Below, one piece after another: positions 35,805-53,403 of a stretch of 64,000 nt of DNA. Source of the DNA: Gammaproteobacteria bacterium (GTDB taxonomy: Bacteria; Pseudomonadota; Gammaproteobacteria; Pseudomonadales; Moraxellaceae); NCBI GenBank assembly GCA_028868515.1, contig JAGWUI010000011.1:1-64000 (forward strand). The letters run 5' to 3'. Position 1 is the first letter of the stretch; every line of letters begins with the position of its first letter. A program made the position numbers and the translations under genes. A model generated the notes under the pieces. It was given only the letters and a program-made list of their open reading frames with translations. It was not told the DNA's origin and ran no database searches.

Positions 35805-35859
35805 GGATCACTGGTTTGTTTGATCGAAGTAAATTGTTTTTATTAAATTTCTTCTGTAG

Positions 35860-36084: not shown

Positions 36085-36101
36085 TCCTCATTTTTTGATA
36101 A

Positions 36102-36130: not shown

Positions 36131-36249
36131 TTCAATTTGAGGTTTGGTTCAGTTATAAAAGCATTGTTCGCAAAGAAGTCTCTATTGAATGTTTTTCAAT
36201 TGCTATTTGACACTACTTTATAAAATTCCAAAAAATGAGGTTACTTAAG

Positions 36250-36711: not shown

Positions 36712-36773
36712 GTCTGCAGCTTTTTAAGAAAACTAAAATGGATTGATATCAAGACAGTAAATTTGGGGTAGCC

Positions 36774-37019
36774 ATGACTGAATCTGAGTATTTGATATTG
36801 TTAGAAAAAATTGAAAGGTTTCGGGTAAGTTTACAGGATAATCCATACACGCTATCGAAGTCAGCGCAATCAACCCTTGCTTTGCTTGCAGTTGATAATA
36901 TCCAGCCAACTCCTTCAGGACTCTTGCGCTTTATGGCGAGCGACAGTGGCGTGATTTCAAAGACAGAAGCGATAGAAATGCTCAAGTGGGAAGCCAAGAT
37001 AAAGGCTAAAATTAAATAA
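36774..37019 (+). CDS. Hypothetical small protein
   Basis: An 81-residue soluble protein, MTESEYLILLEKIERFRVSLQDN..., mostly helical, Lys-rich at the end (KWEAKIKAKIK). GGGGTA lies shortly before the ATG. It is 22 bp upstream of another small gene on the same strand. No family recognised. Confidence 0.55.
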   Translation: MTESEYLILLEKIERFRVSLQDNPYTLSKSAQSTLALLAVDNIQPTPSGLLRFMASDSGVISKTEAIEMLKWEAKIKAKIK

Positions 37020-37041
37020 TAGCTATTGGAGACTTAGAAAA

Positions 37042-37311
37042 ATGGATGAACTTCAACTAGAAAAAACGATTAAATTGGCTTGTAAGATCATATTAGATCA
37101 AACATTGCCACGTTGCTGGAAGATACGCATAGTTAAGCAAGGTCAATCGGCGCTTGAACGCGAGTTGCTGCCCGTTCACTTCAAGTCGTTGAAAGGTGCA
37201 GTCAAATTTGTTTCTCAATATCGGAATGATTGGCAGGTTAATGAACTATCCGATAGTTATACCATGAGTGCATCAGACGCTCGTTCTATCGTGGCTGATG
37301 CTCAACCGTGA
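37042..37311 (+). CDS. Hypothetical small protein
   Basis: An 89-residue protein, MDELQLEKTIKLACKIILDQ..., with a basic core (CWKIRIVKQGQSALERELL) and a C-terminal SDARSIVADAQP. TTGGAGAC precedes the ATG at good spacing. It is probably co-transcribed with the preceding gene. Function unknown. Confidence 0.55.
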   Translation: MDELQLEKTIKLACKIILDQTLPRCWKIRIVKQGQSALERELLPVHFKSLKGAVKFVSQYRNDWQVNELSDSYTMSASDARSIVADAQP

Positions 37312-37649
37312 GTTTCCTCGTCTGGGTGTTTCATCATCCTCTACGAGTGATAGTTAGCATTACTTTCTTCGAGCTTGGCTGGTTCGCAGCTTTCTATTTG
37401 TTCGGAGATCCATATCATTCGTACACTCTGCACGATTGGCTGTGGGGTTATCATCACTCTTGATACTTCCGATTATTAACATTAATCCAATCTTCTTTTC
37501 AAAATCTTTGAAATTTCGTTGTACCAGCCCCCACATGAGAATTTCACCATAGCTTGTACTACCTGTTGATCAGAGCGGTTGCCAAACTATGCTATTTCGC
37601 TTTATTAGTCGTTATTTTTACCATACCTGCCTTTATGTATGGAACTGTC
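37312..37649. other. Gap at the left edge of the serine-recombinase cassette
   Basis: A 338-bp stretch without a convincing gene. A minus-strand frame of 58 codons (37361-37537, MWGLVQRNFKDFEKK...) exists but has no support. This segment should contain the left boundary of the nested recombinase/ParB cassette; I see no terminal repeat. Confidence 0.3.
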
Positions 37650-38087
37650 ATGCTGAACAAGCACTGTAAAGTCTGTAATGCATTGTTTAAACCTTGTCCA
37701 CAAGTTGAAAATCAAACTTATTGCTCAAAACCAGAATGTCAGAAAGCTCGTAAACGGATGTGGCAAAAAAACAAACGTGAGACCGATTTGTCCTATCGTG
37801 AGAATCAATACGCAGCGCACCGAGCTTGGCTCAATCGCAATCCAGAATATGTTCGTCCGAGCCGTAAGCCTAAGAAAAAACCAGACAATGTCATACAGGG
37901 CACAGTTTTACAACCTGAACTCAATACAACTATCCCATGTGAAGGCTGTGGCAAGATGGACTTGTTAATTAAGGAAAACTTATTTAGAACAGGTCTTTAT
38001 CATCTAAAATTCTTAAATGATGAAACAAAAAAGATGGATGCGTGGATTGTTGAAATAACTGTTATATCAAAGTGTTGTAATAGATGA
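37650..38087 (+). CDS. Small zinc-finger-like protein of the recombinase/ParB cassette
   Basis: From the ATG at 37650 (GGAAC seven bases upstream) the product has 145 residues. Two pairs of metal-ligand cysteines, CKVC (6-9) and YCSKPECQKARKRMWQKNKR, are followed by a basic linker (RPSRKPKKKP) and a third CEGCGK. This is a DNA-binding type of zinc protein. The frame continues upstream to 37554 with a hydrophobic stretch, but that extension probably is not translated. I recall such a protein beside serine recombinase/ParB sets; the role is unproven. Confidence 0.6.
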   Translation: MLNKHCKVCNALFKPCPQVENQTYCSKPECQKARKRMWQKNKRETDLSYRENQYAAHRAWLNRNPEYVRPSRKPKKKPDNVIQGTVLQPELNTTIPCEGCGKMDLLIKENLFRTGLYHLKFLNDETKKMDAWIVEITVISKCCNR

Positions 38088-38254
38088 AAAATATAAAGAG
38101 ATGACCAGATAGTTTTTTTATCAAGCAACTGCTAGCGTATTCCGTATGTATTTTAACCACATGCAATGATTTAGCTTACGCCGAGCTGTGACGTGGTCTT
38201 GATTAATGCATAGATGTTCCGTTGTTTTACATCATAATCGGACAACTAGAGCTC

Positions 38255-39820
38255 ATGGAATCAAATAGCATAACAGAGGTGGATCAGAATAAACCGAAGC
38301 GGTTTAGGGCCGCCGAATATGTACGCATGTCCACCGAACATCAGCAATACTCTACACTTAATCAGGCTGATAAAATCCGCGAATATGCAGCGCGTCGCGA
38401 TATAGAAATCGTTCGAACCTACACTGATGAGGGTAAAAGTGGTTTGAATATCGTAGGACGACAAGGATTGCAGGAGTTGATTCGCGATGTACAAGCAGGT
38501 GCGACTGATTTTGAGATCATCTTAGTCTATGATGTAAGCCGCTGGGGACGATTTCAGGATGCTGATGAAAGTGCCTATTACGAATATATCTGCCGTCAAG
38601 CAGGTATACAAGTTGCTTACTGCGCTGAGCAATTTGAAAACGATGGCTCAATATCGTCTACTATTGTTAAAAGCCTCAAACGCTCCATGGCTGGTGAATA
38701 TAGCCGAGAACTATCTGCTAAAGTTTTTGCAGGACAATGTCGGTTGATTCAGCTGGGTTTTCGTCAAGGTGGACCTGCTGGTTATGGACTGCGCCGTGTT
38801 CTTGTAGATCAACATGGTGCCATCAAAGCTGAACTTTCCAGAGGTGAGCATAAAAGTTTACAAACTGACCGAGTAGTTCTTATTCCTGGGCCAGACAATG
38901 AGGTGCGTACGGTTAACACCATGTATCGTTGGTTTATTGATGATGGTCTAGTTGAGTCAGAGATTGCTAGCCGACTTAACAGTATGGCTGTTCGTACTGA
39001 TCTTAATCGTGATTGGACACGGGCTACTGTGCATGAGGTTCTGACCAATGAAAAATACATTGGCAATAACGTCTACAACCGAAGGTCGTTTAAGCTTAAA
39101 AAAAAGCGAGTCGCGAATACTCCCGAAAAGTGGATCAAAAAAGTCGGTGCTTTTGAACCTGTAGTTCCTCCAGATATTTTCTATACCGCGCAAGGTATTA
39201 TTCGTGCTAGATCGTATCGCTATAGCAATGATGAATTAATCGAACGACTACGCAATTTATATCAAAAGCGGGGCTTCCTTTCAGGGTTAATCATCAATGA
39301 AACAGATGATATGCCGTCAACTTCAATTTATGCCCATCGCTTTGGTAGCTTAATTCGCGCTTATCAAATCGTCGGATTTACACCTGATCGCGATTATCAG
39401 TATCTCGAAACCAATAAATTTTTGCGACGTTTCCACCCTGAAATCATTCATGAAACTGAAAATCAAATGATTGCGCTGGGTGGAATAGTTCAGCGTGACC
39501 CTGCGACAGATCTTTTATGGGTCAATGACGAGTTTAGCATTTCCCTCGTGATTTCTCGTTGTCAAACTTCTGAGACAGGCCGTCGGAGTTGGAAAGTACG
39601 CTTCGATACCAGTCTCTCTCCCGACATTACCGTGGCTGTTCGCCTGAATCAGACAAATGATGCGGCGCTAGATTATTACCTGCTGCCAAGATTGGATTTC
39701 GGGCAAGAAAGAATCCGTTTAGCCGATCATAATTCAATTGAGTTTGAAAGCTATCGTTTTAGTAGTCTCGATTATTTATATGGTATGGCAGAGCGTACTC
39801 GTCTAAGGAGGTTTGCATGA
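38255..39820 (+). CDS. Large serine recombinase
   Basis: About 521 residues from the ATG at 38255; an earlier TTG at 38222 is less likely. The resolvase domain opens with RAAEYVRMSTEHQQYST, where the Ser of MST is the nucleophile, and contains YDVSRWGRF and the arginines typical of the active site. A recombinase domain follows (RQGGPAGYGLRRVL, WTRATVHEVLTNEKYIGNNVYNRR), then a C-terminal region of about 180 residues without a coiled coil that I can see. It excises or inserts DNA at specific sites. The stop overlaps the first ParB gene (ATGA). Confidence 0.9.
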   Translation: MESNSITEVDQNKPKRFRAAEYVRMSTEHQQYSTLNQADKIREYAARRDIEIVRTYTDEGKSGLNIVGRQGLQELIRDVQAGATDFEIILVYDVSRWGRFQDADESAYYEYICRQAGIQVAYCAEQFENDGSISSTIVKSLKRSMAGEYSRELSAKVFAGQCRLIQLGFRQGGPAGYGLRRVLVDQHGAIKAELSRGEHKSLQTDRVVLIPGPDNEVRTVNTMYRWFIDDGLVESEIASRLNSMAVRTDLNRDWTRATVHEVLTNEKYIGNNVYNRRSFKLKKKRVANTPEKWIKKVGAFEPVVPPDIFYTAQGIIRARSYRYSNDELIERLRNLYQKRGFLSGLIINETDDMPSTSIYAHRFGSLIRAYQIVGFTPDRDYQYLETNKFLRRFHPEIIHETENQMIALGGIVQRDPATDLLWVNDEFSISLVISRCQTSETGRRSWKVRFDTSLSPDITVAVRLNQTNDAALDYYLLPRLDFGQERIRLADHNSIEFESYRFSSLDYLYGMAERTRLRRFA

Positions 39821-40722
39821 GCGATTGTCCAGATGCAGGTATCGTGCGCATGATTCCTATCGATTGTATTGATGTGTTGAATCCACGTGATAGAAATAAC
39901 AGCGTATTTAATGAAATTATAAAAAATATTGAAACAGTCGGTTTGAAAAAGCCAATTACAGTCACGTCACGCTTTAAAACGGGTGGCTCAGAGCATTATC
40001 TTTTAATTTGTGGCGAGGGACGATTAAAGGCATTTCGAGCGCTAGGTGAAAGTCATATTCCTGCTTTAGTCATTGATGTTAGCGAGGAAAATGCATTCAT
40101 CATGAGTTTGGCTGAGAATATTGCACGCCGCCACCATCGCCCTTTAGAGTTACTTGTAGGTATAGAGCAGTTACTTGATCGAGGGTATGGGAAGAATGAA
40201 ATTGCAAAGAAAACTGGGTTATCGCCAGAGTATGTGCAGGGAGTATTAACATTACTCAAGCACGGTGAAGAACGATTATTAGTTGCTGTAGAGAAAGGTG
40301 GAATCCCATTGAATGTTGCATTAGCAATTGTTGGTGCAGGTAATGATGATGTCGCTATTCAATCTGCGTTGCAAGATGCTTATGAGTCTGGAGCACTTCG
40401 TGGCAACCGTTTGAATCATGCACGCAGAATTATTGCGCACAGGAGCATATCTGGGCGAAAAGTTTCGCGCAATCCTGAAGTAAGAAGAACTCAGGAGCTA
40501 ACATCTTCAGGCATTATACGAACTTATCAAAAGGAAGCTGAACGACAGAAACTATTGATAAAGAAATCCAATATAACTCAGCAGCGGTTGTTGATTATTG
40601 TTAGTGCGTTACGAAAATTATTTGCTGATGAGAATTTTGTGACGTTATTACGAGCGGAAGATTTAGATTCATTACCTACGTACCTTGATGAGCGTATAAA
40701 GGTTGGAGCACATTCATTATGA
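39817..40722 (+). CDS. ParB/RepB-family protein (first copy)
   Basis: A 301-residue protein with the ParB N-terminal domain: IPIDCIDVLNPRDR, GLKKPITVT, the box LLICGEGRLKAFRALGESHIPALV (GEGR is the ParB nucleotide-binding signature GERR/GEGR) and AENIARRHHRPLELL, followed by an HTH (YGKNEIAKKTGLSPEYVQGVL). In plasmids ParB marks the centromere; here, beside a recombinase, it more likely controls recombination or recognises the element. Overlaps both neighbours by four bases. Confidence 0.85.
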   Translation: MSDCPDAGIVRMIPIDCIDVLNPRDRNNSVFNEIIKNIETVGLKKPITVTSRFKTGGSEHYLLICGEGRLKAFRALGESHIPALVIDVSEENAFIMSLAENIARRHHRPLELLVGIEQLLDRGYGKNEIAKKTGLSPEYVQGVLTLLKHGEERLLVAVEKGGIPLNVALAIVGAGNDDVAIQSALQDAYESGALRGNRLNHARRIIAHRSISGRKVSRNPEVRRTQELTSSGIIRTYQKEAERQKLLIKKSNITQQRLLIIVSALRKLFADENFVTLLRAEDLDSLPTYLDERIKVGAHSL

Positions 40723-41597
40723 GTAAAGTTCCTGTGGGTTTCGATCTTGAAACATTGATGATTCCGATTAAACAGATTTTACCATCAAGACGAATGCCCA
40801 GTTCAGTCATGACTACGCGTAAATATCAGCAAATTAAAGCCTCAATTCAAGAGGTTGGGCTTATCGAGCCCTTATCTATAGCCGTATCTGATGCTAAAAC
40901 TGGACATTATATTTTACTGGATGGGCATGTACGGCGACTGGTTTTACAAGAGTTGGGACACGAGCAAGCAGTTTGCCTGATCTCAACCGATGATGAGAGT
41001 TATACCTACAATAGCAGAGTAAACCGTTTGTCACCCATCCAAGAACATCGGATGATTAAGCGGGCGGTGGATCGAGGGGTTGATCCTGAACGATTGGCTA
41101 GAGCACTGAATTTAGATACAAATTCTATCGTAAAAAAATTAACCATGTTGCACGGTATATGCCCAGAAGCGATAGAGCTACTAAAAAGTCGCCAGTTTTC
41201 CTCTCAAGTTTTCTCAGCACTTAGAAAAATGAAGCCAACTCGCCAGTTAGAGTGCATTGATTTAATGATTTCAGCTAATAACATTACTGCCAAATATGCG
41301 GAGTCAATATTAGTTGCTACGCCTGAATCGATGTTGGTACAAGGAAATCGAAAAGCAAATCAGCGTAAAGGATTAAGTTCAGAGCAGATGGCAAAAATGG
41401 AAATGGAGATGAGTAATCTTGAAGTGCAGTTTAAGATTGCTGAGCAAAGTTATGGTGATGACAGTTTGGATTTTGTTGTAGCAAAAGGTTATTTGACACG
41501 TTTACTAAGCAATTCATCAGTAACTCGCTATCTCAAGCAACATCAACAGGAAATCTTGACTGAACTTGAGAATATTGTTCAGGTCACTTCCTACTAA
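40719..41597 (+). CDS. ParB/RepB-family protein (second copy)
   Basis: A 292-residue protein with a ParB-like N-terminus (IPIKQILPSRRMPSS, VGLIEPLSIAV, HYILLDGHVRRLVLQELGHEQAVCLI) and a plasmid-partition RepB-like C-terminal half (QFSSQVFSALRKMKPTRQLECIDLM). It is distantly related to the preceding gene, so a duplication with divergence is likely. It is the last gene of the cassette; a nested stem-loop follows. Confidence 0.83.
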   Translation: MSKVPVGFDLETLMIPIKQILPSRRMPSSVMTTRKYQQIKASIQEVGLIEPLSIAVSDAKTGHYILLDGHVRRLVLQELGHEQAVCLISTDDESYTYNSRVNRLSPIQEHRMIKRAVDRGVDPERLARALNLDTNSIVKKLTMLHGICPEAIELLKSRQFSSQVFSALRKMKPTRQLECIDLMISANNITAKYAESILVATPESMLVQGNRKANQRKGLSSEQMAKMEMEMSNLEVQFKIAEQSYGDDSLDFVVAKGYLTRLLSNSSVTRYLKQHQQEILTELENIVQVTSY

Positions 41598-43433: not shown

Positions 43434-44003
43434 CTATATAGAACCGACATTTGCTAATGCTTTTGTCGGTTTTTCACTTTCTAATTTCATTAGTCTATAA
43501 GCTGATGCCTCATAGCTTGTTTGATACATAATTTGGACTTGAATAGCACTATTTATTGTTTTACATATATTGAATGGCATTAAAAGCTCAGATGCAAAGG
43601 TGTTCGCTTGCCATTCAGAATCCTCAAAAATTTTATGGCCACCATTATTGGCACGAGCCAAGGCAATATTTTCATGAAGTGTTAAATGTCCAATCTCATG
43701 ACAAATTGTAAATCTCGCACGTCCATCATTATTATGCAAAGCATCGTATACATCTTCACGGATAAGTAATTCTAATGTGTCTGGGCTTGCTGCTGCTTCG
43801 CAGTTTCCCATTTCTTCCATGGTCTTAATTATTAAAACTACACCCAGCTTACCTAGAATAATTTCCAAGCTCTTAACCACATTAAGACTTTTATTATCTT
43901 CGCATTTGAAAAGCAGTCTTCTATACATGAGGGCTAGGCCTCTAATATTGTTTACGCTTCGAGGTTTAACCTTTACACCATGTGGCTTAAAGTCTGGGTG
44001 CAT
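43434..44003 (-). CDS. ImmA/IrrE-family metallopeptidase
   Basis: A 189-residue protein with the zinc motif HEIGH at 102-106 in FTICHEIGHLTLHE and downstream acidic/Asn residues in EWQANTFASELLMPF, diagnostic of ImmA/IrrE. The partner gene upstream is an XRE regulator, 17 bp away. In ICEBs1 ImmA cleaves ImmR to release the element; in other cases the pair acts as an XRE/COG2856 toxin-antitoxin-like module. Which applies here is open, but the association with element 2 makes regulator cleavage plausible. Confidence 0.87.
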   Translation of the reverse strand: MHPDFKPHGVKVKPRSVNNIRGLALMYRRLLFKCEDNKSLNVVKSLEIILGKLGVVLIIKTMEEMGNCEAAASPDTLELLIREDVYDALHNNDGRARFTICHEIGHLTLHENIALARANNGGHKIFEDSEWQANTFASELLMPFNICKTINSAIQVQIMYQTSYEASAYRLMKLESEKPTKALANVGSI

Positions 44004-44020
44004 TTAGTTTTTCTCCCTGA

Positions 44021-44374
44021 TTAAAGTTCTTCTTTCAAAGCTTGATGGATTCGTTCCGCAAAGGTCGAAGATCCTTCTAATCGTCTAGCAAACATAAGCG
44101 CAACTTCAGATTCGAAATCACTTTTGGGTCGAAGAGTAACATCAGGTCTAGACTTACTTGCAGCGAGAGTCAATGAATGAGCCTCGCCTGTAGATAAAGA
44201 CATGTGTTGTGTAATGTTGTTAATAAGTTGCGCATTAACAGGCTTGCGCCCAGTCTCAACTGCAGACAAGTAAGCTGGAGTTACTTCCAACCTATCTGAC
44301 AAATCCTTCAAAGTCATATCTTTATCGATTCGCATCTTCCTGAGCGCTTTTCCAAAATCTGATAATGTTGACAT
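44021..44374 (-). CDS. XRE-family regulator paired with ImmA
   Basis: About 117 residues from the ATG at 44374, which has AAGGAGAAGG upstream; the frame is open to 44419 but lacks a site there. The HTH (DFGKALRKMRIDKDMTLKDLSDRLEVTPAYLSAVETGRKPVNAQLINNI in pieces) fills the N-terminal half, and a helical tail of about 50 residues follows, ending RIHQALKEEL. It is expected to repress its own operon and to be the substrate of the adjacent ImmA-like protease. Confidence 0.85.
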   Translation of the reverse strand: MSTLSDFGKALRKMRIDKDMTLKDLSDRLEVTPAYLSAVETGRKPVNAQLINNITQHMSLSTGEAHSLTLAASKSRPDVTLRPKSDFESEVALMFARRLEGSSTFAERIHQALKEEL

Positions 44375-44556
44375 AGCTACCTTCTCCTTAAGCCTGACAA
44401 CTAGTTGTCTTGTAGGCATGAGATTAACTCATAAATCAATTCTATAACTGTTTTTAAGATAAATCAACCAGTAGGTTAATTTTTTAAATAAATGATTATT
44501 TTATATCTTGGATTGAGTTAATTCGATTCTTACAGTTTAGTTAGCAATTGGGTGCA

Positions 44557-44786
44557 TTAGAGTAAGCCCAGCACTTGACCACGATTCATGGCTTCGCGGA
44601 ATTATTTTGCCATATCAACCAGTTCTTGCATGACCTGCGCGGTTTCGATACTGCGGTTTTGGTAGCGCTTGACCACGTTTGACAATAATTCAGAAAATTT
44701 CTTTTGCTGGACAACGTTGCTAGACATCTTCGATTTGATTTCACCTTCAAGCAGGCGTTCAAGTAATTCAACAGCAAGATTTCTCT
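44557..44786 (-). pseudogene. Remnant of a type I restriction endonuclease (hsdR) 3' end
   Basis: In the minus-strand frame of this interval the translation is NLAVELLERLLEGEIKSK, then MSSNVVQQKKFSELLSNVVK, RYQNRSIETAQVMQELVDMAK, stop (TAA where CAA is expected), then FREAMNRGQVLGLL and a normal stop. This is the end of HsdR of the EcoR124 type. Everything upstream has been lost: the preceding sequence belongs to the MltR-like gene, 14 bp away. It is a dead relic that marks an earlier type I system at this site. Confidence 0.7.
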
Positions 44787-44799
44787 CTGGGAGATTACT

Positions 44800-45447
44800 T
44801 TAGGGATTTTGGGCTTGTCGGCGAGATTGTTCGGCCATAATGATTCTTTTGCGCTCCTCAATTGGTAAATCAAAAATACTTATATATTTTTCAGGTAATC
44901 GCTTTCCAAGATTCTCGGCGTAAGATTGCCTTGCCAAAAGATCCGAAATCACCTTGCTACTGATATAGAAAAACCATCCCTTATTGGAACCCTCAATTTC
45001 ACCACGATACATTTTTTTTAATTCTTCAGCATAAGATAAAGTCAAAAGCTTCTTGATTGCTTTCTTAAAATTATCTGTTAGTTCAGAATTGGACCATGCT
45101 GTACCCCAGTTATGGGCAAATTCATTCCTGATCATGGCCATGATTTTTATGGCTTCATATTCGTTATCAGTGATCAGATATAAAACATTGGCGATCTTTG
45201 CTCGGTACATGAGAGTGGACAGTGGACTACCATCAAGCTGTTCAATTAGAGCTTTTGTTTTAAGCTTGTTTGGGAAGAAGCCATTCAGCAGCGCTATCAA
45301 ACGTTCATCAATAAAAGACACAATGTTCAAAACCGCTCCGCGTTCGGTCTCAGTTTCGACAGCGCTAGCAAAATCTGAAAGCATCTTGTTGTATTCTTCA
45401 CTTTCCAAAGAAGCAATAAAACTTAAACTCTCACCTAATTTAGCCAT
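44800..45447 (-). CDS. MltR-like (mannitol repressor fold) protein
   Basis: A 215-residue protein resembling the MltR fold: RGAVLNIVSFIDERLIALLNGFF (about 37-59) and LSTLMYRAKIANVLYLITDNEYEAIKIMAMIRNEFAHNW (about 76-114). MltR proteins have no DNA-binding motif and form helical bundles; the same fold recurs in defence islands, where it is often called DUF4145-like. It lies just downstream of the GIY-YIG gene (67-bp gap) on the same strand, so it might be the last gene of the restriction-like cassette. Confidence 0.7.
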   Translation of the reverse strand: MAKLGESLSFIASLESEEYNKMLSDFASAVETETERGAVLNIVSFIDERLIALLNGFFPNKLKTKALIEQLDGSPLSTLMYRAKIANVLYLITDNEYEAIKIMAMIRNEFAHNWGTAWSNSELTDNFKKAIKKLLTLSYAEELKKMYRGEIEGSNKGWFFYISSKVISDLLARQSYAENLGKRLPEKYISIFDLPIEERKRIIMAEQSRRQAQNP

Positions 45448-45514: not shown

Positions 45515-46702
45515 TTAGTCAGCATCAACAGCCAAACTAGCAGTTTTCGGGTCGTATACAACATCTGTGATCGAACCATCATGGATACGGCCCACGACTT
45601 CATCAATCACGTGAAGGGGGACTAGAAACCACTCCCGTGGATGCACAGGATTCCCAAACCTATCCTGAATAGAGAGATTGAGCTGTACAGGTGAAAAAAT
45701 CCGATGAAACAAGTTTTCCAATTTTGTTTTATTAATGCTGGCAAGTTTGTATGTCGCAACAATCTCAACATCCGCCATCAAGAATGTCGGATCAAGGGCA
45801 GCATTAGTAATTCGTGCTTCAACCTTGCCTCCAGTTACGCCGATTTTGTGGATCAAATCTCGATGTTGAGCAATGTACGGATGATCTGACAAACTTCTCA
45901 GCACATAAATCGTGCCACTCTCGATATCTCCTTCTTCCCACTCTTCACCAAACAGTGGCCCATTATTAGGATCAGTGACTCTACGACCTGCTTCATCCTT
46001 ATGCAGCGCGCGTTGCAAAGATCGGCGTAACAGGTTGCTCTCAGTTCCATTGGAAAAAATCACTCTCAAACGCGCATCATTGCTTCCATTTGGGGCTTTG
46101 ATTGTTTCGCCAACTTCAGCAATATAGGCAACTTGACCAGACAGGATAAAAAAGTTCCCTGCCTCAACACTCGCATCTCTAACAAATCGCTTTGTCACTC
46201 GTAAACCAGTCTGAATGTCCTTTTCGACCTGTTCAAACAGCGGCTTATATTCTGCAAAATTAATACAGGGAGTGCGGTTTGCAACTTCTTCTGCTGCACG
46301 TCGCTCTTCAAAAGTACCGACATGCTTTAGCTGAGTAATATCATTGTCGGCATCACCTGATATTCCTAACTCAGCAAGTAATTCTTCATCATCTAAATCA
46401 TCTATCTGTGTGCCCATTGATAGAGCATCAGCAGAAAGCAGCCCTTGATGATCTAAAGGGGTGAGCAACTCAAAAGCATCGGGTAATGATCGTAATTGAT
46501 CAAGCCGCACAGCATACAGGCGCTCAAATATGTCACGATCTTCGCCATGGAGCGGTAAACGGCCATGTTGTTCGTAAAATCGCTGAATGTCTTCAAATCC
46601 CGCAATCAGTCGCTCTTCGCGTTGGCTGCGACCGCCGACTTTAATGGGCGCCACACTGACGCCAAGGGCATCAAGCAAATCATCATCGGATAAATCAGAC
46701 AT
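45515..46702 (-). CDS. GIY-YIG nuclease protein of a restriction-like cassette
   Basis: A 395-residue protein from the ATG at 46702, which overlaps the helicase stop by eight bases; the longer frame to 46846 would overlap the helicase by 150 bp. Two related acidic motifs, DLSDDDLLDALGV (3-15) and DLDDEELLAELGI (102-114), suggest duplicated docking segments. The GIY-YIG domain occupies about 263-365: GTIYVLRS, KIGVTGG (286-292), RI, and Glu330 in LENLFHRIF. This is the T5orf172-like type. It is a strong candidate for the cleaving subunit, coupled to the helicase. Confidence 0.83.
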   Translation of the reverse strand: MSDLSDDDLLDALGVSVAPIKVGGRSQREERLIAGFEDIQRFYEQHGRLPLHGEDRDIFERLYAVRLDQLRSLPDAFELLTPLDHQGLLSADALSMGTQIDDLDDEELLAELGISGDADNDITQLKHVGTFEERRAAEEVANRTPCINFAEYKPLFEQVEKDIQTGLRVTKRFVRDASVEAGNFFILSGQVAYIAEVGETIKAPNGSNDARLRVIFSNGTESNLLRRSLQRALHKDEAGRRVTDPNNGPLFGEEWEEGDIESGTIYVLRSLSDHPYIAQHRDLIHKIGVTGGKVEARITNAALDPTFLMADVEIVATYKLASINKTKLENLFHRIFSPVQLNLSIQDRFGNPVHPREWFLVPLHVIDEVVGRIHDGSITDVVYDPKTASLAVDAD

Positions 46703-48827
46703 CTGTCGCTCCACGCTGTTCTGCGGCTTTCTGTTGAGCACGATGTCGTGCAAGTGCTGCAATACCTTCAGCCATACGCTTTTCCCAAGGGTCTTGCGCA
46801 TTAATATCAGGTAAACGACCGCGTTCTGTTTTAAATTGTAAGGCACGCTTTGCTAGATCGCGCGCTTCATCATACGAAATATTGAGTTTTTTGGCGGCGA
46901 TACTCGCTTGTACCTGTTTAAGCGTTTTCTCATCCATCGTCTTACCGAGAATGGAATATGCGGCATCAAATGGATTAATTCGATCAATCAAATCAATATC
47001 CAAATCACGCACATTCACAAACTTACGCACCCCTTGGATCAAGGACAGATTGCCTTTTTCTAATCCCGCATTGTCGCCATTAAAACTTTCATCACTTTGG
47101 GTTTCGTACTTGGCCTGTTGAGTCATGACGAGTGCAGCAACGGCATGTTGTCGCACGGCTTCGTGATCAGCTTCACTAAGCTGTGGATAGCGATCACGAA
47201 CTATTTTGCCCATACGAACTTGATTCAATTCTTCTGGAATCGTATTGTCATGATCAAAAAGCCCTCGTTCAAGTGATGGCTTATCCTGCACAAATGCAGT
47301 GATTACCTCATTCAGATCCTCGCTACAAATACGTGCAGCCTCTGGGCTTTTCGGCATGGACAGGCCGTTAATTTCTACATGCACTTGACCAGTTTTGTCA
47401 TTAACACCAACATTTGATTTGTTTTCTTGATAGCCATCAGGGCCATAATCAAAGCCTTCTTGAGGCCCTGTATTCTTTGGCGTGAATTCAAATTTCGGTG
47501 CAAGCACTTGCTCCATTAGCAAGCTGGCTGCAATGGCTTTTAACGTGTCATTGATTGCTTCAACGACTGTAGATTCATCAGCAGTGGGTTCAGCGATTAA
47601 ATTGGTAAAACGTGCTCGAACCTTACCTTTGGCATCGCGTGTTGCACGGCCAATGATTTGAATAATCTCGGTCAAACTGCTGCGGTAGCCAATGGTCAAT
47701 GCATGCTCACACCAAATCCAGTCAAAGCCTTCCTTTGCCATGCCCAGCGCAATAATGATGTCAACATGATCGCGATTGTTTCGTTGAGTTGAATCTTTGA
47801 GAGCATTCAGCACATTCGAGCGTTTTGACGTATCCGCATCGTCAACCAGATCAGCCACTTTGATAATTCGGCCGCCATGTTCAGCAGATAACTCAATCAG
47901 ATGAAATCCTGTTTTAGGATCAACTCCTTTCCAAGTCCCCAGTGAATCAATGATTTCCTCAACTTCTTTGTGTTTGTCTTTTAGACTTTCCCGTGAGTTC
48001 ACATTGGGGATATGCACAATCGTTTTTAGCGCAGGATCAAGCACCTTCATAATGGCATCAAGGTAGCGACCTGTATAAAAGAAATAGCCGATGTCTAGCG
48101 ATTTTAGGTATTCGTAGCCATTGAGCTGTTCATAATAAGTGTACGTGATTGTCTCGAAACGGGATTCATCTTCTGGCGATAGTACTGCCTCGGCATCGCC
48201 ACGGAAATACGAACCCGTCATTGCGACGATATGGGCTTTGTCACGCACGATGAACTGACCCAATTGAGCGCCTAGTCGATTATCAGGATTAGAGCTAACA
48301 TGATGAAACTCATCGACCGCAATCAACCGATTATCAAATGCGGCGATACCTAGTTCATCTACTGCAAACCGAAATGTCGCATGGGTGCAGACCAGCACAT
48401 GATCTTCACTGGCGAGGAATTCTCCAACAGCCTTGACCTTCGATTTAGCAATGCGCGGTTCATCAATGCCTGGCGCATTACACAAGTTCCATTGAGGTTT
48501 GACGACCCAATCCGCCCAAAATCCAAATTTACTCAATGGCTCATCAGAAAAACTGCCCCCGATAGAACGCTCAGGAACAACGATAATCGCCTGCTTCAAA
48601 CCTTGGTTATGCAGTTTGTCCAATGCGACAAACATCAATGCGCGAGATTTACCTGATGCAGGAGGTGACTTGATCAGTAGGTATTGTTCACCACGTTTAG
48701 CATAGGCGCGCTCCTGCATAGCACGCATTCCCATGCTATTTGGCTTTTGCGATGCGCCTGTATGAGCCGTCGTAATAGACACAGCAGGTATCGTTTGCTT
48801 GTTCGTTGGATTCTGAGAGTCCATCAT
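46695..48827 (-). CDS. SF2 DEAD/DEAH-type helicase of the cassette
   Basis: A 710-residue protein. Motifs: Walker A SPPASGKSRA (54-63), Walker B AVDEFHHV (170-177, DEFH in place of DEAD/H), motif III-like AMTGSYFRG (202-210), and motif VI QIIGRATRDAKGK (390-402). The GAT/SAT motif is replaced by TGSYF. The two RecA-like domains are followed by about 300 residues of unassigned C-terminal sequence. Such SF2 enzymes translocate on DNA in type I, III and ISP-type restriction. Coupled by eight-base overlap to the GIY-YIG gene. Confidence 0.88.
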   Translation of the reverse strand: MMDSQNPTNKQTIPAVSITTAHTGASQKPNSMGMRAMQERAYAKRGEQYLLIKSPPASGKSRALMFVALDKLHNQGLKQAIIVVPERSIGGSFSDEPLSKFGFWADWVVKPQWNLCNAPGIDEPRIAKSKVKAVGEFLASEDHVLVCTHATFRFAVDELGIAAFDNRLIAVDEFHHVSSNPDNRLGAQLGQFIVRDKAHIVAMTGSYFRGDAEAVLSPEDESRFETITYTYYEQLNGYEYLKSLDIGYFFYTGRYLDAIMKVLDPALKTIVHIPNVNSRESLKDKHKEVEEIIDSLGTWKGVDPKTGFHLIELSAEHGGRIIKVADLVDDADTSKRSNVLNALKDSTQRNNRDHVDIIIALGMAKEGFDWIWCEHALTIGYRSSLTEIIQIIGRATRDAKGKVRARFTNLIAEPTADESTVVEAINDTLKAIAASLLMEQVLAPKFEFTPKNTGPQEGFDYGPDGYQENKSNVGVNDKTGQVHVEINGLSMPKSPEAARICSEDLNEVITAFVQDKPSLERGLFDHDNTIPEELNQVRMGKIVRDRYPQLSEADHEAVRQHAVAALVMTQQAKYETQSDESFNGDNAGLEKGNLSLIQGVRKFVNVRDLDIDLIDRINPFDAAYSILGKTMDEKTLKQVQASIAAKKLNISYDEARDLAKRALQFKTERGRLPDINAQDPWEKRMAEGIAALARHRAQQKAAEQRGATDV

Positions 48828-48958
48828 TATATTTTTTCCTTTTACGCTTACTGCCTCAAGGCATCTTATTCATTTAGGTAGAGATTGCGTTTCTAGGCAT
48901 TTAAATTGGCCGCGTATATCGCGCGTATAACCGCGTATAACCGCGTATAAGTTCATCA
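48828..48958. repeat. Ten-bp tandem repeat between the helicase and AlbA_2 genes
   Basis: Four decamers related to CCGCGTATAA run head to tail from 48910 to 48950, the last two identical. The period equals one helical turn, so the copies face the same side of the DNA. The array sits directly upstream of the helicase gene (transcribed minus) and just after the AlbA_2 stop at 48959. A fifth similar block (CCGCGTATAG) occurs inside the AlbA_2 gene near 49170. A regulatory binding array is likely. Confidence 0.6.
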
Positions 48959-50629
48959 TTACGAATCGCTATTTACAGTGTAAAAAGAGCCGCGCAGTTT
49001 GCCATGCTGTATGAGCTTGTCTTCATTTTTCAAACGCGTGAGCAGTCGAGTTGCTTGATCCTCGCTCAAATGACACAACTCAATGACATCGTTACGCTGA
49101 ATGCGACTATGTTGTTGAACAAAGTTCAAAACCATTTGTTCATGTTGCAATGAACTAAAACCAGCTTGCCGCGTATAGGCCACTTGCTCGCCATGAGCAC
49201 GATACATTTGCGCTGATAGGGTATAACTGCGACTGCGGGTATTACCATGTGCCTGCAACAATCCAGCCTCGACTAACTGTTCCAAGGTACGTCTTGTCTG
49301 TGTTGCATTGCGGTGTATATGTTGAGACAACTCATCCGCATCCATTCTCTTGTGTTCACGCAATGCTGCCAACACAATCAGACTATCAATCGGCAATGGG
49401 GTGTCATTGTGACTTTTCTCTTGCTCTACCACCAGTTTTAAAAACGGCTCGTCAGCATCTACTGTTGCCAACTGCAATACCACATTATTATGATCAGTAC
49501 GGCTGTAATCTGGTTCAGGACGTCCAAAGCGCAACATACCCCGATATATTTTGTCTACACCACGACCAGAACGCTCAACAATACCAATTCGCTTCATGGC
49601 ATCAGCCAGAGCTGGATTGCGTGGGCGCGGCTCAGTCGTTAGCAGGTTTTGCAAGGTTACACCTTCTACCAATCCACCGGGATTACTCACAGTCAACCCA
49701 TGGTCATCTAACCGCACATGAACCGTTCCTAGACGGTGGTAATCACGATGTACCAGCGCATTTGCTACTGCCTCTCGAAATGCCCCCATGTCTACTTTTG
49801 GTACGGGCACACGAAACAAACCTATTTGAATTTCACTTTCTGGATTATAAGGACGAAAATTTGTCTCCAGCCAATCCAATGCCTTCAATAAAGGGAAACG
49901 TCTAAATTCATTAAATGAAACAGCCTCTCGCGCCAACACCTGAAACGCCAGTTCATACGTGGGGACTCGCTCACGCAATGCTGGCTCTCGCCCTATGACT
50001 AATAGACCAGTCAGCGTTGGAACACGCACACCCTGATCATTGCGAGTGGTGAAACCTAGTGCGCCATCCAGTGCTTCATCGTCTAATTCCAGTAGCACGC
50101 GGTCGCCGCCATATTGGCGAACGGTTTGACGCAATCGCTCACGTTCTAGCGGATCCAAATCATTCAGTGTTGCGCCAGCCACAGCTTGTGCAGAAACGTC
50201 ATACAAGCCAAAGCGTCCAGCACGGCTGCTTCGTTCATGCGGTAACATCGGTACACATTCAGGTGTACCATCCTGTTTGAGACGACGACGTAAATACATG
50301 CCACTCGTGGTCGCAACTTCAGTACTGGATTGGGGCACGAGTATTTGAGCCACATGCACGCCAGCTACCTCTATTGGATTCACGGTAACAGCTAGGGAAG
50401 GGGATGTTCTGGACGCGATCATCCCCGACAACCCCGTCAAATTCTGATGTTCTTTATGCAAGCCAGTGGGAGTTCCATCATCTTCTACGCCCAACCAGAG
50501 TTCACCGCCTTCAGCGTTGGCTAGACATGTCAAAGCCGCAACCAAATCATCATCAGACAATCGCTTACGGTCACTCTTAAATTCAACTTTTAGGCTTTCC
50601 GAAGTAGGTAAGATGCGTGGCTCAGTCAT
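48959..50629 (-). CDS. AlbA_2 (Schlafen-type) ATP-binding protein with winged helix
   Basis: A 556-residue protein. The AlbA_2 domain covers about 8-130 (ESLKVEFKSDRKRLSDDDLVAALTCLANAEGGELWLGVEDDG). A GHKL-like ATP-binding C-terminal part follows at about 280-390: AFREAVANALVHRDYH, SNPGGLVEGVTLQNLL, RSGRGVDKIYRGMLRFG. The end holds two winged-helix-like segments (ADELSQHIHRNATQTRRTLEQLVEAGLL and IQRNDVIELCHLSEDQATRLLTRL). It starts in the last bases of the methyltransferase (ATGA overlap). A regulatory or sensor role fits, but the activity is unproven. Confidence 0.82.
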   Translation of the reverse strand: MTEPRILPTSESLKVEFKSDRKRLSDDDLVAALTCLANAEGGELWLGVEDDGTPTGLHKEHQNLTGLSGMIASRTSPSLAVTVNPIEVAGVHVAQILVPQSSTEVATTSGMYLRRRLKQDGTPECVPMLPHERSSRAGRFGLYDVSAQAVAGATLNDLDPLERERLRQTVRQYGGDRVLLELDDEALDGALGFTTRNDQGVRVPTLTGLLVIGREPALRERVPTYELAFQVLAREAVSFNEFRRFPLLKALDWLETNFRPYNPESEIQIGLFRVPVPKVDMGAFREAVANALVHRDYHRLGTVHVRLDDHGLTVSNPGGLVEGVTLQNLLTTEPRPRNPALADAMKRIGIVERSGRGVDKIYRGMLRFGRPEPDYSRTDHNNVVLQLATVDADEPFLKLVVEQEKSHNDTPLPIDSLIVLAALREHKRMDADELSQHIHRNATQTRRTLEQLVEAGLLQAHGNTRSRSYTLSAQMYRAHGEQVAYTRQAGFSSLQHEQMVLNFVQQHSRIQRNDVIELCHLSEDQATRLLTRLKNEDKLIQHGKLRGSFYTVNSDS

Positions 50630-53403
50630 GCTTTCTTTCCTCTCACAGTTGCTTTCTTAGCGGTTTCAGTAGTCATTTTTGTATAAAGATCAAAGAGTTT
50701 TTCCTGTCGCTCTGTATCGTTTTTAAAACGCCGACCAATATAAATCCGCTCAAGTAACTCATCGTTTTGCTCATGAGCACGACGTAAGTTTTCAGGCATT
50801 GTTTCTGGATCATAGAGATCAGTTATGGTTGCTGGGAAATGTATTTCACGAGCTAACAGAATATTTTCTGCACAGTGGGTCAGATCAGCTTTATTCTGTT
50901 CTGTTAAAGCTGGAACTGGGAAAGTGTTCCAGCCCATTGTATTAGAGTACCTATAGTGAATTCTCATTTTACCGCAGACTGTTGCAATCCATACACGATG
51001 CAGACTAGATGCAATAATCGCCATATTCCAAAGAGGTGCATCGAAAATTGCAAATGCCTCACTTGTTACCGTACATTGGTTATCAATTAATCCACATGGT
51101 AAAAATTTACGATTTTCAGTTGTTGTCCTAGCGATGATTATTGTCCATTTATCACCAATATTCATTTCTCTCATCTGATGGGATCGTGTTGCCATATCAT
51201 TAGCACCACTATCTTTACTTGCCAGACGTATAGCTCTGACTTTTTCAATGCGCTCCGAGATACCATTAACTTCAATAGCTTCTGTAAGATTGCAATCATT
51301 TATCCACAAACAATAACGATCAATACCTCGTGTGAATTCAGCCGAACCATAAATGCGACGAATAAAGTGATTATTTTGAGTATCCGTTAAACAAAGATGG
51401 TCAACCTCAGTTCGACTCAAAAGTAAAAAACCTCCATCAACTGGCTTATTCCCAAACTTCATTGGAGCTAAACCAGAAATAGAGTATGAGGACTTTTCTA
51501 CAATGATATTTGCAGCAGGAACCAAATAGGCGTTGATATTATCTGATCGCTTCTCAATCGTGTCACCGTTTTCACCAATCGAAAACAGCTGTTTTAACTG
51601 CCCGATTTTATTTGAAATGCCGACTATTGCTACAGTAACCCCAGCATTGTTACTGGCGAGATTTGCCCATTGAAAGCTAGTGTATGCAAAAGTAATCTCA
51701 TTCCCAGTTCCGAAAATCAGAGGCCACAAAATCGGCACTTGCTGTCCTTGGCAGATGGAATTTGTCGTTACAAAAGCTGCTGCTGAATTTGTATGTTTGC
51801 CATAGTCAGCGGCTTTCATGAACCAGCCAGCCACATAGTCGAGCGATTTCCAGCTGGTTGTACGACCATTAAAGATATTTTCTAAATCGGCTTTCTGACC
51901 TGCATCTTGCCATGTCGAACCTAAATATGGCGGATTTCCACAAATATAAGTCTCACCACCCTCATTCTCGAATTCTATTTCTGCTTGCTCTAATGGGGTC
52001 TCAAACAGGTCATTAGCAACGAGTTTGACACTACTGCCTGTAGGCGGACAAATACTAAGCCAATCAACCCGCAGCGAATTGCCACAAGTTATCCAGTTCT
52101 CAGCACTCAGCGGCAAAAATTCAGCCAATGCCTGCTGCTGACCCAAATACAACTCATCGCACTGGTACTCTGCAATAATCAACGCTAATCGTGCAATTTC
52201 CGCAGGAAAATCACGTAATTCAATCCCGCGAAAATTGGTTAATGGAATTTCGGAGCGTAAATGTGTTTCTTGTCTTTTTTGATTGATTTTGGATTCAATG
52301 GCGCGCAATTGTTTGTAAGCAATCACCAAGAAATTTCCAGAACCACAGGCTGGATCAAACACACGAATTCTCGCCATGCGTTTTCGCAGGTTCAAGAGCA
52401 TCCGATGATTATCACCTGCTGCCTCAAGTTGTGCATTCAGATCATCCAAAAATAGCGGATTGAGCACTTTTAGAATGTTGGGCACACTGGTGTAGTGCAT
52501 TCCCAATGAACCCCGCTCTTCATCATCAGCCACTGCCTGAATCATCGAACCAAAAATATCAGGATTGATCTTTTTCCAGTCAAGCTCACCCGCCCGAATT
52601 AAATAAGATCGAGCAATTTTTGAAAATTTGGGAACTTCGGTACTGCCTGAAAAAAGTCCACCATTCACATAAGGAAAAGGATCAGCCCAGTTTGGCACTT
52701 TTTCAGTTTTACGCTTTGATTCGTGGACGTTCATTGACCTAAAAAGTTCACTGACAACCTCATGCGTATTGGATGAGTCACGCTCAGTCATTTGATCAAT
52801 AGTACGGGTAAACAACCCTGAGCCATCGAAAATACCCGTATCTTCAGCAAAGAAGCAAAAAATCAACCGCGCCATGAAATGATTCATATCATGGCGACGT
52901 GCTTCAGTTGCCCATTCAGGATTGTCCTTGAGTAACTCAACATAAAGCCTATTTAGACGGCTCGTAGCTCGGACATCAATAGGATTTTCTTTGATTTCCT
53001 TGATCGTTGAGATGCCAGCAAGAGGCAAGAAAAAACCAAAATGCTGTTCAAGATCTACGAAGCTAGATGTGAAGTGCTCACCGCTACTGAGCTCTTCCGT
53101 TTCCAACATCTCGCCATCAGTCGCAAGGATAAATTTTGCTTTAGCCGTTGCCGTTTTTGGACTTTCACGCAGCGCATTTAAGGTGGCACTAACTTGGCCT
53201 AAATCACAAACGGCGATATGAATATTATTACGTTGAAGCACGCCATTGGGTACATCTGACGCATTGGTATCACCGCTCTTCAGCCGCTTGATCGTGGTCT
53301 CTTTGTTGCCAAAGGCAGCAAGAAACGCATAAGGGAATTGCTCCCTATCAAATGGTTGACTCGACAGATCAGATACGGCGACTTCAATTTCAACTGCATT
53401 CAT
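50626..53403 (-). CDS. MmeI-like DNA adenine methyltransferase of the cassette
   Basis: About 925 residues from MNAVEIEV at 53403 (an upstream start at 53448 is also open). The N-terminal 300 residues resemble the MmeI N-terminal and helical spacer parts (GRLN-like RLNRLYVELLKDN, HDMNHFMARLIFCFFAEDT). The catalytic part has SAM motif DPACGSGNFL (350-359) and NPPY (490-493), i.e. N6-adenine or N4-cytosine type. The target-recognition region follows. No D..ExK nuclease is visible at the N-terminus, unlike MmeI, so it probably modifies only. Its last bases overlap the AlbA_2 gene. Confidence 0.87.
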   Translation of the reverse strand: MNAVEIEVAVSDLSSQPFDREQFPYAFLAAFGNKETTIKRLKSGDTNASDVPNGVLQRNNIHIAVCDLGQVSATLNALRESPKTATAKAKFILATDGEMLETEELSSGEHFTSSFVDLEQHFGFFLPLAGISTIKEIKENPIDVRATSRLNRLYVELLKDNPEWATEARRHDMNHFMARLIFCFFAEDTGIFDGSGLFTRTIDQMTERDSSNTHEVVSELFRSMNVHESKRKTEKVPNWADPFPYVNGGLFSGSTEVPKFSKIARSYLIRAGELDWKKINPDIFGSMIQAVADDEERGSLGMHYTSVPNILKVLNPLFLDDLNAQLEAAGDNHRMLLNLRKRMARIRVFDPACGSGNFLVIAYKQLRAIESKINQKRQETHLRSEIPLTNFRGIELRDFPAEIARLALIIAEYQCDELYLGQQQALAEFLPLSAENWITCGNSLRVDWLSICPPTGSSVKLVANDLFETPLEQAEIEFENEGGETYICGNPPYLGSTWQDAGQKADLENIFNGRTTSWKSLDYVAGWFMKAADYGKHTNSAAAFVTTNSICQGQQVPILWPLIFGTGNEITFAYTSFQWANLASNNAGVTVAIVGISNKIGQLKQLFSIGENGDTIEKRSDNINAYLVPAANIIVEKSSYSISGLAPMKFGNKPVDGGFLLLSRTEVDHLCLTDTQNNHFIRRIYGSAEFTRGIDRYCLWINDCNLTEAIEVNGISERIEKVRAIRLASKDSGANDMATRSHQMREMNIGDKWTIIIARTTTENRKFLPCGLIDNQCTVTSEAFAIFDAPLWNMAIIASSLHRVWIATVCGKMRIHYRYSNTMGWNTFPVPALTEQNKADLTHCAENILLAREIHFPATITDLYDPETMPENLRRAHEQNDELLERIYIGRRFKNDTERQEKLFDLYTKMTTETAKKATVRGKKA

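What the first reader, a model, noticed from the sequence alone, without database searches (positions are those of the whole stretch)
45515..53403. Four-gene methyltransferase / AlbA_2 / helicase / GIY-YIG cassette: candidate under-described restriction-type defence
The order on the minus strand is MmeI-like methyltransferase, AlbA_2 ATP-binding protein, DEFH-box SF2 helicase, GIY-YIG nuclease. The first two share an ATGA overlap and the last two an eight-base overlap, so each pair is made together. The methyltransferase shows SAM and NPPY motifs but no visible ExK nuclease, so cleavage is likely given to the helicase plus GIY-YIG pair. I cannot map this exact composition onto BREX, DISARM or type I/III restriction. 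I do recall similar methyltransferase families next to AlbA_2 and helicase genes, so it may exist widely but unnamed.
Basis: partly seen in the sequence, partly recalled or inferred. Interest (0 to 1): 0.85.

Follow-up and report, generated by a model that had tools for sequence, protein, structure and literature searches.

The report
Restriction operon with plug-in toxin slot
This is a known but little-studied bacterial restriction (anti-virus) operon of three core genes, carrying in a swappable slot a fourth gene that looks like a bacterial relative of the human antiviral Schlafen RNases, probably a self-sacrifice backup if the first defence fails.

Summary
The four genes are real, with the stated coordinates and overlaps. 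Three form a described cluster: MmeI-like methyltransferase, helicase and T5orf172/GIY-YIG nuclease are DnmA(YeeA)-YeeB-YeeC, proposed in print as type I-like R-M (PMC7261158, PMC9973331). The methyltransferase keeps MmeI's domains and SAM/NPPY motifs but lost the nuclease residues (0 of 108 aligned rows keep D..ExK); GIY-YIG residues persist in 120 of 122 rows. AlbA_2 is not core: of 120 distinct helicase-centred loci with a methyltransferase, 63 carry at least 300 bp between methyltransferase and helicase, against 1 of 121 at the helicase/GIY-YIG junction. The slot holds AlbA_2 (12 loci), RhuM, DUF1016/YhcG, Fic, GmrSD, PIN, YafQ, PD-(D/E)XK, AAA_13 or unknown proteins, overlapping the cargo reported for other R-M and BREX loci. 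The window's AlbA_2 has the Schlafen triad (E11/E16/D50 = SLFN13 E205/E210/D248) plus ATPase and winged-helix parts; relatives of at least 50% identity sit in one hsd and several BREX loci. Best reading: type I-like restriction with a swappable backup RNase, working like PrrC beside PrrI. Tandem repeats (10-11 bp) after all 8 close AlbA_2 genes remain unexplained.

The parts
50626..53403 (-). MmeI-like DNA methyltransferase (DnmA/YeeA type; N6-adenine by homology), nuclease site lost; ORF open from 53448
   Evidence: PADLOC PDLC03598 E=2.2e-286; five MmeI Pfam domains; FDPACGSGNF in 106/108 and NPPY/NPPF in 107/108 rows, D..ExK in 0/108
50626..50629 (-). ATGA overlap of MTase stop and AlbA_2 start
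   Evidence: cargo has this 4-base overlap with the MTase in 36 of 63 distinct filled slots; MTase and helicase have it in 33 of 55 empty ones
48959..50629 (-). Slot cargo: Schlafen/AlbA_2 + HATPase_c_4 + winged-helix protein, predicted RNase; triad E11, E16, D50
   Evidence: Pfam; Schlafens top the PDB profile search, 5yd0 E=1e-7; AlphaFold2 mean pLDDT 88.1; SAMD9 tRNase domain Z 9.9 on residues 1-142
48910..48951 (-). 10-bp tandem repeat (TTATACGCGG; three copies and an imperfect fourth) directly after the AlbA_2 stop
   Evidence: score 19, 0 of 200 shuffles as high; TTATRMGCGG in tandem occurs once in the 3.34-Mb genome
46695..48827 (-). SF2 helicase, YeeB type
   Evidence: DEAD Pfam; PASGKS, DEFHH and QIIGRxTR invariant in 12 members; 68% identical plasmid gene annotated YeeB (H23)
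45515..46702 (-). GIY-YIG (T5orf172/MUG113) nuclease, YeeC type
   Evidence: Pfam; G, Y, K-x-G, R, E each kept in 120 of 122 rows, gaps in the other two

Best explanation
A type I-like restriction-modification operon of the DnmA-YeeB-YeeC kind with a backup suicide effector plugged into its cargo slot. Shown from sequence: core gene order, loss of the MmeI nuclease site, intact methyltransferase, helicase and GIY-YIG motifs, slot turnover, intact Schlafen triad in AlbA_2. Inferred: the methyltransferase marks a short asymmetric site with m6A; on unmodified phage DNA it recruits the YeeB translocase and the YeeC GIY-YIG nuclease, which cut; if a phage blocks or overwhelms this complex, AlbA_2 (sensing through its ATPase and winged-helix parts) is released and cleaves tRNA or other RNA to stop translation, as PrrC does beside the PrrI hsd system.
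For: Order and domains; MTase upstream in 120 and GIY-YIG downstream in 121 of 126 distinct loci; nuclease motif gone in 108/108 MTase rows, GIY-YIG residues kept in 120/122. In print: DnmA makes m6A at GACGAG; MmeI homologues without endonuclease motif are flanked by yeeB/yeeC and were suggested to be type I-like; V. crassostreae dnmA and yeeB deletions raised sensitivity to some phages, as told in PMC9973331. Slot: 63/120 interrupted versus 1/121 at the helicase/GIY-YIG junction; in the unnamed draws alone 20/41; on a helicase tree the 8 close AlbA_2 rows need 8 changes, at least 5 forced by starred branches. Cargo with a Pfam match is nuclease- or toxin-like. AlbA_2: the profile alignment to SLFN13 puts E11/E16/D50 on E205/E210/D248, whose mutation diminished SLFN13 cleavage; E11 and E16 invariant, D50 at least 90% in 20 sequences; SAMD9 tRNase domain Z 9.9, rmsd 3.6 over 136 residues. 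Relatives: 74% in an hsd locus (L192), 43-47% in another (L222), 51% beside a PLD-helicase and Eco57I-type MTase (L193), 52-55% in seven BREX loci. Schlafen + minimal histidine kinase + wHTH is named as a BREX backup RNase in PMC12839542.
Against: No activity is shown for this locus. In B. subtilis the single deletions tested changed neither phage sensitivity nor (for dnmA) plasmid uptake, and the authors call the cluster a relic. The best whole-length structural match of AlbA_2 is DIP2311 (3lmm), named there an uncharacterized protein, and its C-terminus resembles transcription regulators, so a regulator role is open. 55 of 120 distinct loci have an empty slot, so the core does without cargo there. 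Slot content is not wholly free of the core's history: all labels together need 42 changes against a shuffled mean of 54.1, and RhuM clusters (3 changes for 7 rows). Four of the 12 slot AlbA_2 genes are a distant type (two measured at 23% identity).
Confidence: 0.58

Rival explanations
1. AlbA_2 is a transcription regulator that times restriction against methylation, like C proteins of type II R-M (recalled): it is co-translated with the MTase, binds the 10-bp repeats just upstream of helicase/GIY-YIG, and delays or limits the nuclease half.
For: Winged-helix-like segments at 394-481 and 491-556; tandem repeats between AlbA_2 stop and helicase score 10 or more in 8/8 close loci (16 or more in 7/8) and in 0/55 empty loci; by eye the unit type goes with the AlbA_2 clade (GGAT-core units in L106, L110, L112 and hsd-linked L192, one clade at 96/98).
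Against: Most loci do without AlbA_2; the Schlafen triad is conserved, which a pure regulator would not need; no promoter excess in the region (14 found, 15.8 expected).
Confidence: 0.17
2. The cassette is a relic: the MTase acts as an orphan epigenetic enzyme and the nuclease half is dead, as claimed for B. subtilis dnmA-yeeB-yeeC.
For: Published negative tests in B. subtilis.
Against: All four ORFs intact; helicase and GIY-YIG motifs intact; the B. subtilis proteins are said to lack C-terminal stretches that the V. crassostreae ones have.
Confidence: 0.12
3. AlbA_2 is an independent passenger (a self-contained anti-phage Schlafen or a toxin-like gene) that settles in R-M operons for expression, with no functional tie to the core.
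For: Related proteins in hsd, BREX and Yee loci; AlbA_2 is scattered on the helicase tree (8 changes for 8 rows).
Against: One junction is used (63/120 versus 1/121), mostly on the same strand (92 of 99 slot ORFs of 100 aa or more), often with the 4-base MTase overlap (36/63).
Confidence: 0.13

Closest known systems
DnmA-YeeB-YeeC (YeeABC) cluster, B. subtilis and V. crassostreae
   Same: Same three protein kinds in the same order; MmeI-like MTase without endonuclease motif, YeeB helicase, T5orf172/GIY-YIG YeeC
   Different: A Schlafen/AlbA_2 gene sits between MTase and helicase; such a slot is not mentioned in the passages I read
MmeI (type IIL/IIG) enzymes
   Same: All five MmeI Pfam domains; sequence aligned with 5hr4 over nearly its whole length
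   Different: D70/E80/K82 lost; helicase and nuclease are separate proteins
Type I R-M with embedded PrrC-like genes (PrrI-PrrC; PMC3710099)
   Same: Interposed gene with an RNase signature inside an R-M operon; AlbA_2 relatives after hsdS (L192) or between hsdM and hsdS (L222)
   Different: Core is MmeI-like MTase + YeeB + YeeC, not HsdM/S/R; PrrC is an ABC-ATPase/HEPN protein, AlbA_2 a Schlafen/HATPase protein
BREX with Schlafen-mHK-wHTH backup RNase (PMC12839542)
   Same: Same cargo architecture; 52-53% identical proteins between brxC and pglX, in some loci with one or two further genes
   Different: No PglZ or BrxC match and only weak PglX matches here
Human Schlafens (SLFN13, SLFN5, SLFN11) and SAMD9 tRNase domain
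   Same: E-x4-E...D triad (Schlafens) and fold of the N-domain
   Different: Bacterial, fused to HATPase_c_4 and winged-helix segments

Membership tests
DnmA-YeeB-YeeC cluster | MmeI-homologous MTase lacking the N-terminal PD-ExK motif | tested here: met
   domains; 0 of 108 rows keep D..ExK
DnmA-YeeB-YeeC cluster | SF2 helicase then T5orf172/GIY-YIG gene downstream, same strand | tested here: met
   here with one gene interposed before the helicase
DnmA-YeeB-YeeC cluster | Direct sequence homology to the B. subtilis or V. crassostreae proteins | not tested
   those sequences were not fetched; assignment rests on domains, order and a 68% identical gene annotated YeeB (H23)
DnmA-YeeB-YeeC cluster | Asymmetric m6A motif and anti-phage activity | not testable with these tools
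   needs methylome and plaque assays
MmeI type IIL restriction enzyme | Own PD-ExK nuclease site | tested here: not met
Type I R-M | HsdM, separate HsdS, HsdR | tested here: not met
   no HsdM_N, Methylase_S or HSDR_N hit at E<=0.001 in the four proteins; the TRD is fused (MmeI_TRD)
BREX | PglZ and BrxC with PglX | tested here: not met
   ten proteins at 39.8-53.4 kb scanned: no PglZ or BrxC hit; PADLOC PglX models at most 30.7 bits on the MTase; NCBIfam BREX MTase models 23.9-25.8 bits against cut-offs of 400-900
DISARM | DrmA helicase and DrmB | tested here: not met
   only DrmMI methylase models hit, at most 94 bits; no DrmA/DrmB hit in ten proteins
Schlafen/AlbA_2 RNase | E-E-D carboxylate triad in an AlbA_2 domain | tested here: met
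Schlafen/AlbA_2 RNase | RNA cleavage | not testable with these tools
   needs biochemistry
PrrC-like guard of an R-M system | Held inactive by the R-M complex and released on its inhibition | not testable with these tools
   only the operon position is shown

The most novel reading that the evidence does not exclude
The MTase/helicase junction of DnmA-YeeB-YeeC operons is a dedicated cargo port: unrelated toxins and nucleases are swapped in and out there, each becoming a guard that fires when this restriction complex is disabled, and the 10-11-bp repeats behind AlbA_2 are its operator or the seam along which cargo is exchanged. The PrrC principle would then hold across at least three unrelated R-M architectures (hsd, BREX, Yee).
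Probability: 0.35. Interest if true: 0.75.

Novelty: new variant of a known kind. Interest (0 to 1): 0.55.

Why it matters
The DnmA-YeeB-YeeC core is widespread: the helicase was matched in 26 of 390 genomes of the order (own genome and one weak 63-residue match included), in 24 of 398 of the phylum (own included; four genomes are in both draws) and over at least 80% of its length in 151 of 72,556 plasmid records. Yet its helicase and GIY-YIG proteins have no convincing model in PADLOC-DB 2.0.0. A swappable toxin slot could explain why deletion tests of one strain's core look inert, gives a defined place to look for new anti-phage effectors (several recurrent occupants have no Pfam or PADLOC match for the member tested), and makes the guard hypothesis testable with one catalytic mutant.

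Tried and rejected
Rejected: BREX, DISARM, type I and self-cutting MmeI membership (see the membership table). E. coli holds helicase/GIY-YIG DNA in 99 of 5,426 genomes (the one locus opened, L003, has no AlbA_2 gene); no E. coli record matched the AlbA_2 DNA at blastn sensitivity. Plasmids (103 records) and phages (20 records) gave no AlbA_2 relative of 60% identity or more. The promoter scan was uninformative (14 found, 15.8 expected); terminator-like sites were 13 against 7.3, sd 3.0, not followed up. A shared repeat of helicase C-terminus and GIY-YIG N-terminus is only weakly backed (hhalign probability 40%, E 3e-4). The 61-residue downstream fragment found nothing in Pfam and no credible PDB match; plasmid HsdR proteins then matched at up to 85%. 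Element ends: only one 26-nt pair at 85% (26679 and 52690, the second inside the MTase gene), not accepted.

Caveats on counts. Rows dropped: G107 (weak match) and a second contig of G137 were not fetched. Six loci lack a methyltransferase upstream: L097, L098, L139 and L150 have under 400 bp before the helicase, L077 is a helicase fragment, L159 has 3.7 kb without a match. Five lack GIY-YIG: four end within 70 bp of the helicase, the fifth is L077. Close-type AlbA_2 occurs in 1 of the 44 unnamed loci (L066). Some slot ORFs counted are probably spurious (opposite-strand ORFs in L085, L133, L148, L161). L162 and L178 are 98% alike. The helicase tree is FastTree and the tool warned of long branches joining among distant rows.

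Papers: PMC9973331, PMC7261158, PMC12707154, PMC5862951: passages; PMC12839542: passages and part 1 of 2 of section 35; PMC3710099: passages and section 10; all other papers: search listings only. Morgan 2009 (gkp534) and the V. crassostreae paper (name Piel 2022 recalled) are not held; I know them through the two DnmA papers. Taboada 2025 was seen only as a citation. Novelty searches: in this open-licence library; no title or abstract start listed there points to cargo between dnmA and yeeB, but most listed papers were not opened.
Full report
1. The observation. Pfam gives MmeI_N, MmeI_hel, MmeI_Mtase, MmeI_TRD and MmeI_C for the first protein, SLFN_AlbA_2 plus HATPase_c_4 for the second, DEAD for the third and T5orf172/MUG113 (GIY-YIG class) for the fourth. 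PADLOC knows the first as a type IIG enzyme (PDLC03598, 950.5 bits), gives cross-hits of at most 46.8 bits for the second and 22.9 for the third, and none for the fourth.

2. What the core is. A 68% identical plasmid helicase is annotated 'YeeB', which led to the B. subtilis dnmA(yeeA)-yeeB-yeeC papers. The passages I read say that DnmA methylates GACGAG, is 38% identical to MmeI, belongs to MmeI homologues that lack the endonuclease motif and are flanked by yeeB/yeeC, and that a type I-like system had been suggested; the B. subtilis cluster did not restrict in the tests made, while in V. crassostreae deletion of dnmA or yeeB raised sensitivity to some phages. The window fits: in alignment with MmeI (5hr4) D70, E80 and K82 fall on G69, A79 and C81, and none of 108 aligned rows has D-x8-11-ExK there, while FDPACGSGNF is kept in 106 and NPPY or NPPF in 107 of 108 (one row is a duplicate). 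That D70/E80/K82 are MmeI's catalytic residues is recalled; the alignment shows D, E and K at those positions. GIY-YIG residues G, Y, K-x-G, R and E are each kept in 120 of 122 rows, the other two being gaps.

3. How common. The helicase is found in 26 of 390 genomes of the order, 24 of 398 of the phylum (four genomes in both, own included) and 264 of 72,556 plasmid records, 151 of them over at least 80% of its length. In 126 distinct helicase-centred loci the MTase lies upstream in 120 and the GIY-YIG gene downstream in 121.

4. The slot. In the 120 distinct loci with an MTase upstream, the MTase-helicase gap is under 100 bp in 55, 100-299 bp in 2 and 300 bp or more in 63; the helicase-GIY-YIG gap reaches 300 bp in 1 of 121 (L075, 328 bp). 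In the unnamed draws alone 20 of 41 slots are filled, in the named set 42 of 76. Empty slots have a 4-base (ATGA-type) overlap of MTase and helicase in 33 of 55; in 36 of 63 filled slots the cargo has that overlap with the MTase. Of 20 slot proteins put to Pfam, 10 pass a cut-off: Virulence_RhuM, DUF1016/YhcG PDDEXK, PDDEXK_4, YafQ toxin, GmrSD_N, Fic-like_C, AAA_13, Fic, PIN, DUF559; one is under its cut-off and 9 have no match. Of ten put to PADLOC, six match candidate or named defence families and four do not. By BLAST clusters AlbA_2 occupies 12 loci (8 close, 4 distant), RhuM-like 8 and DUF1016-like 8; a slot can hold two genes. On a helicase tree of 122 rows the 8 close AlbA_2 loci need 8 changes (no clustering beyond shuffles; 5 forced by starred branches) and DUF1016 7 for 7; but RhuM needs 3 for 7, empty 28 for 54 (shuffled mean 39.0), and all labels together 42 against 54.1 in shuffles, so slot content is partly inherited. 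One locus keeps a fossil: L108 has other cargo but retains about the last 27 codons of an AlbA_2 gene (79% identical) and its repeats before the helicase. L066 and L067 are sisters on the tree with different cargo; the spacer just before their helicases is 85% alike over 60 bp and both carry repeats of one family.

5. The window's cargo. The AlbA_2 N-domain profile finds Schlafens first in the PDB (5yd0, E=1e-7); the alignment sets window E11, E16 and D50 on chain positions 218, 223 and 261, which with a constant offset of 13 are E205, E210 and D248 of SLFN13 (the offset is my inference), residues whose mutation diminished RNase activity. E11, E16, F17 and K18 are invariant and D50 kept in at least 90% of 20 sequences. 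The AlphaFold2 model (mean pLDDT 88.1, pTM 0.64) matches DIP2311 over its length (3lmm, Z 29.8, rmsd 16.3 over 431 residues, so domain by domain) and SAMD9's tRNase domain on residues 1-142 (Z 9.9, rmsd 3.6), with many winged-helix proteins of like Z at 394-556; Foldseek ranks Schlafen N-domains at E 2e-4 to 8e-4. Relatives sit in other R-M loci: 74% identical after hsdM-hsdS with a weak HsdR match beyond (L192), 43-47% between hsdM and hsdS (L222), 51% between a PLD-helicase and an Eco57I-type MTase (L193), 52-53% after brxC and before pglX in six BREX loci (L220, L224-L228; named by PADLOC on L227, by likeness of the first residues on the others), 55% beside BrxC and PglXI (L219). L218, L221, L223 and L229 are 50-56% relatives whose context I could not assign to one of these (L229 has another MmeI-family MTase nearby on the other strand). 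On an AlbA_2 tree the hsd-linked L192 groups with the Yee-linked L106, L110 and L112 at 96/98, so the gene has moved between system types. L192's copy is broken near its C-terminus. PMC12839542 calls Schlafen + minimal histidine kinase + wHTH a backup RNase of BREX in at least 1017 taxa; PMC3710099 sets out the PrrC-PrrI model of a guard released when the R-M system is disabled, with RhuM and Fic/Doc companions.

6. Repeats. Directly after the AlbA_2 stop lies a 10-bp tandem repeat (window 48910-48951). Of 35 AlbA_2 genes examined, 16 have a downstream array that no shuffle of 200 equals: all 8 close Yee loci, L142, L160, L192, L218, L219, L228, L229 and L202 (mostly period 10 or 11; 14 in L229; at +155 in L219); L226 and L227 follow at 0.01 and 0.005; L194, L196 and L199 lie at 0.02-0.04; the other 14 (L162, L178, L193, L195, L197, L198, L200, L201, L220-L225) are not convincing (mononucleotide shuffles). 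L117's array is imperfect. Of 52 slots with other cargo (one a duplicate) 4 score 16 or more, two of them (L067, L108) with the units of their AlbA_2-bearing kin, two (L058, L114) of another kind; of 55 empty loci none reaches 10. I cannot tell operator from recombination seam.

7. Surroundings. The cassette lies on what looks like a mobilizable island: tyrosine integrase 29872-31062, MobA/MobL relaxase 34248-35804, large serine recombinase 38222-39820 and two RepB/ParB proteins. Just downstream is a remnant of a type I hsdR gene (44601-44783; up to 85% identical to Acidovorax HsdR), whose intact relative has an 'ATP-binding protein' gene between hsdS and hsdR (not compared with AlbA_2). The genome has two HsdM_N loci elsewhere and this one MmeI-type MTase.

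8. Verdict. Core: known kind. Four-gene composition: a variant in which a Schlafen-type RNase candidate occupies a swappable slot. I put 0.58 on type I-like restriction with a backup RNase. Shown: gene content, motif loss and retention, slot turnover, cross-system exchange of the AlbA_2 gene. Inferred: recruitment, cleavage, sensing and tRNA attack. Interest is 0.55: the core is in print, and the searches listed showed me no description of the slot.

Noticed in passing
window 48910-48951; L066, L106, L110, L112, L117, L156, L158, L192, L067: 10-11-bp tandem arrays directly after AlbA_2 stop codons (about 30 nt after the broken C-terminus in L192; after other cargo in L067); copy number varies (about 3-4 in the window, about 13 in L067). 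Function unknown.
   Followed up: partly
window 44601-44783 (-): Remnant of a type I hsdR C-terminus just downstream of the cassette, up to 85% identical to plasmid HsdR of Acidovorax.
   Followed up: yes
window 29872-41597: Tyrosine integrase, MobA/MobL relaxase, large serine recombinase and two RepB/ParB genes: the cassette rides on a probable integrative mobilizable element; ends not found.
   Followed up: partly
window 43434-44419 (-): XRE regulator plus ImmA/IrrE-like peptidase pair with weak capH/capP matches.
   Followed up: no
window 44800-45447 (-): 215-aa protein directly downstream of the cassette, no Pfam or PADLOC family.
   Followed up: no
L108 slot, upstream of the helicase: Fossil AlbA_2 C-terminus (about 27 codons) and repeats left behind after cargo replacement.
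   Followed up: yes
L003 (E. coli EBJ003): Core cassette without AlbA_2 lies beside IS26 and antibiotic-resistance genes; described only.
   Followed up: no
L001/L204 (own genome, contig C75): A second AlbA_2-domain gene in the same genome; no Yee-type neighbour was found by BLAST, other R-M genes were not looked for.
   Followed up: no
slot protein clusters of L146, L172, L178, L067: Recurrent slot occupants (5, 4, 3 and 3 members) whose tested member has no Pfam or PADLOC match: candidate new effectors.
   Followed up: no
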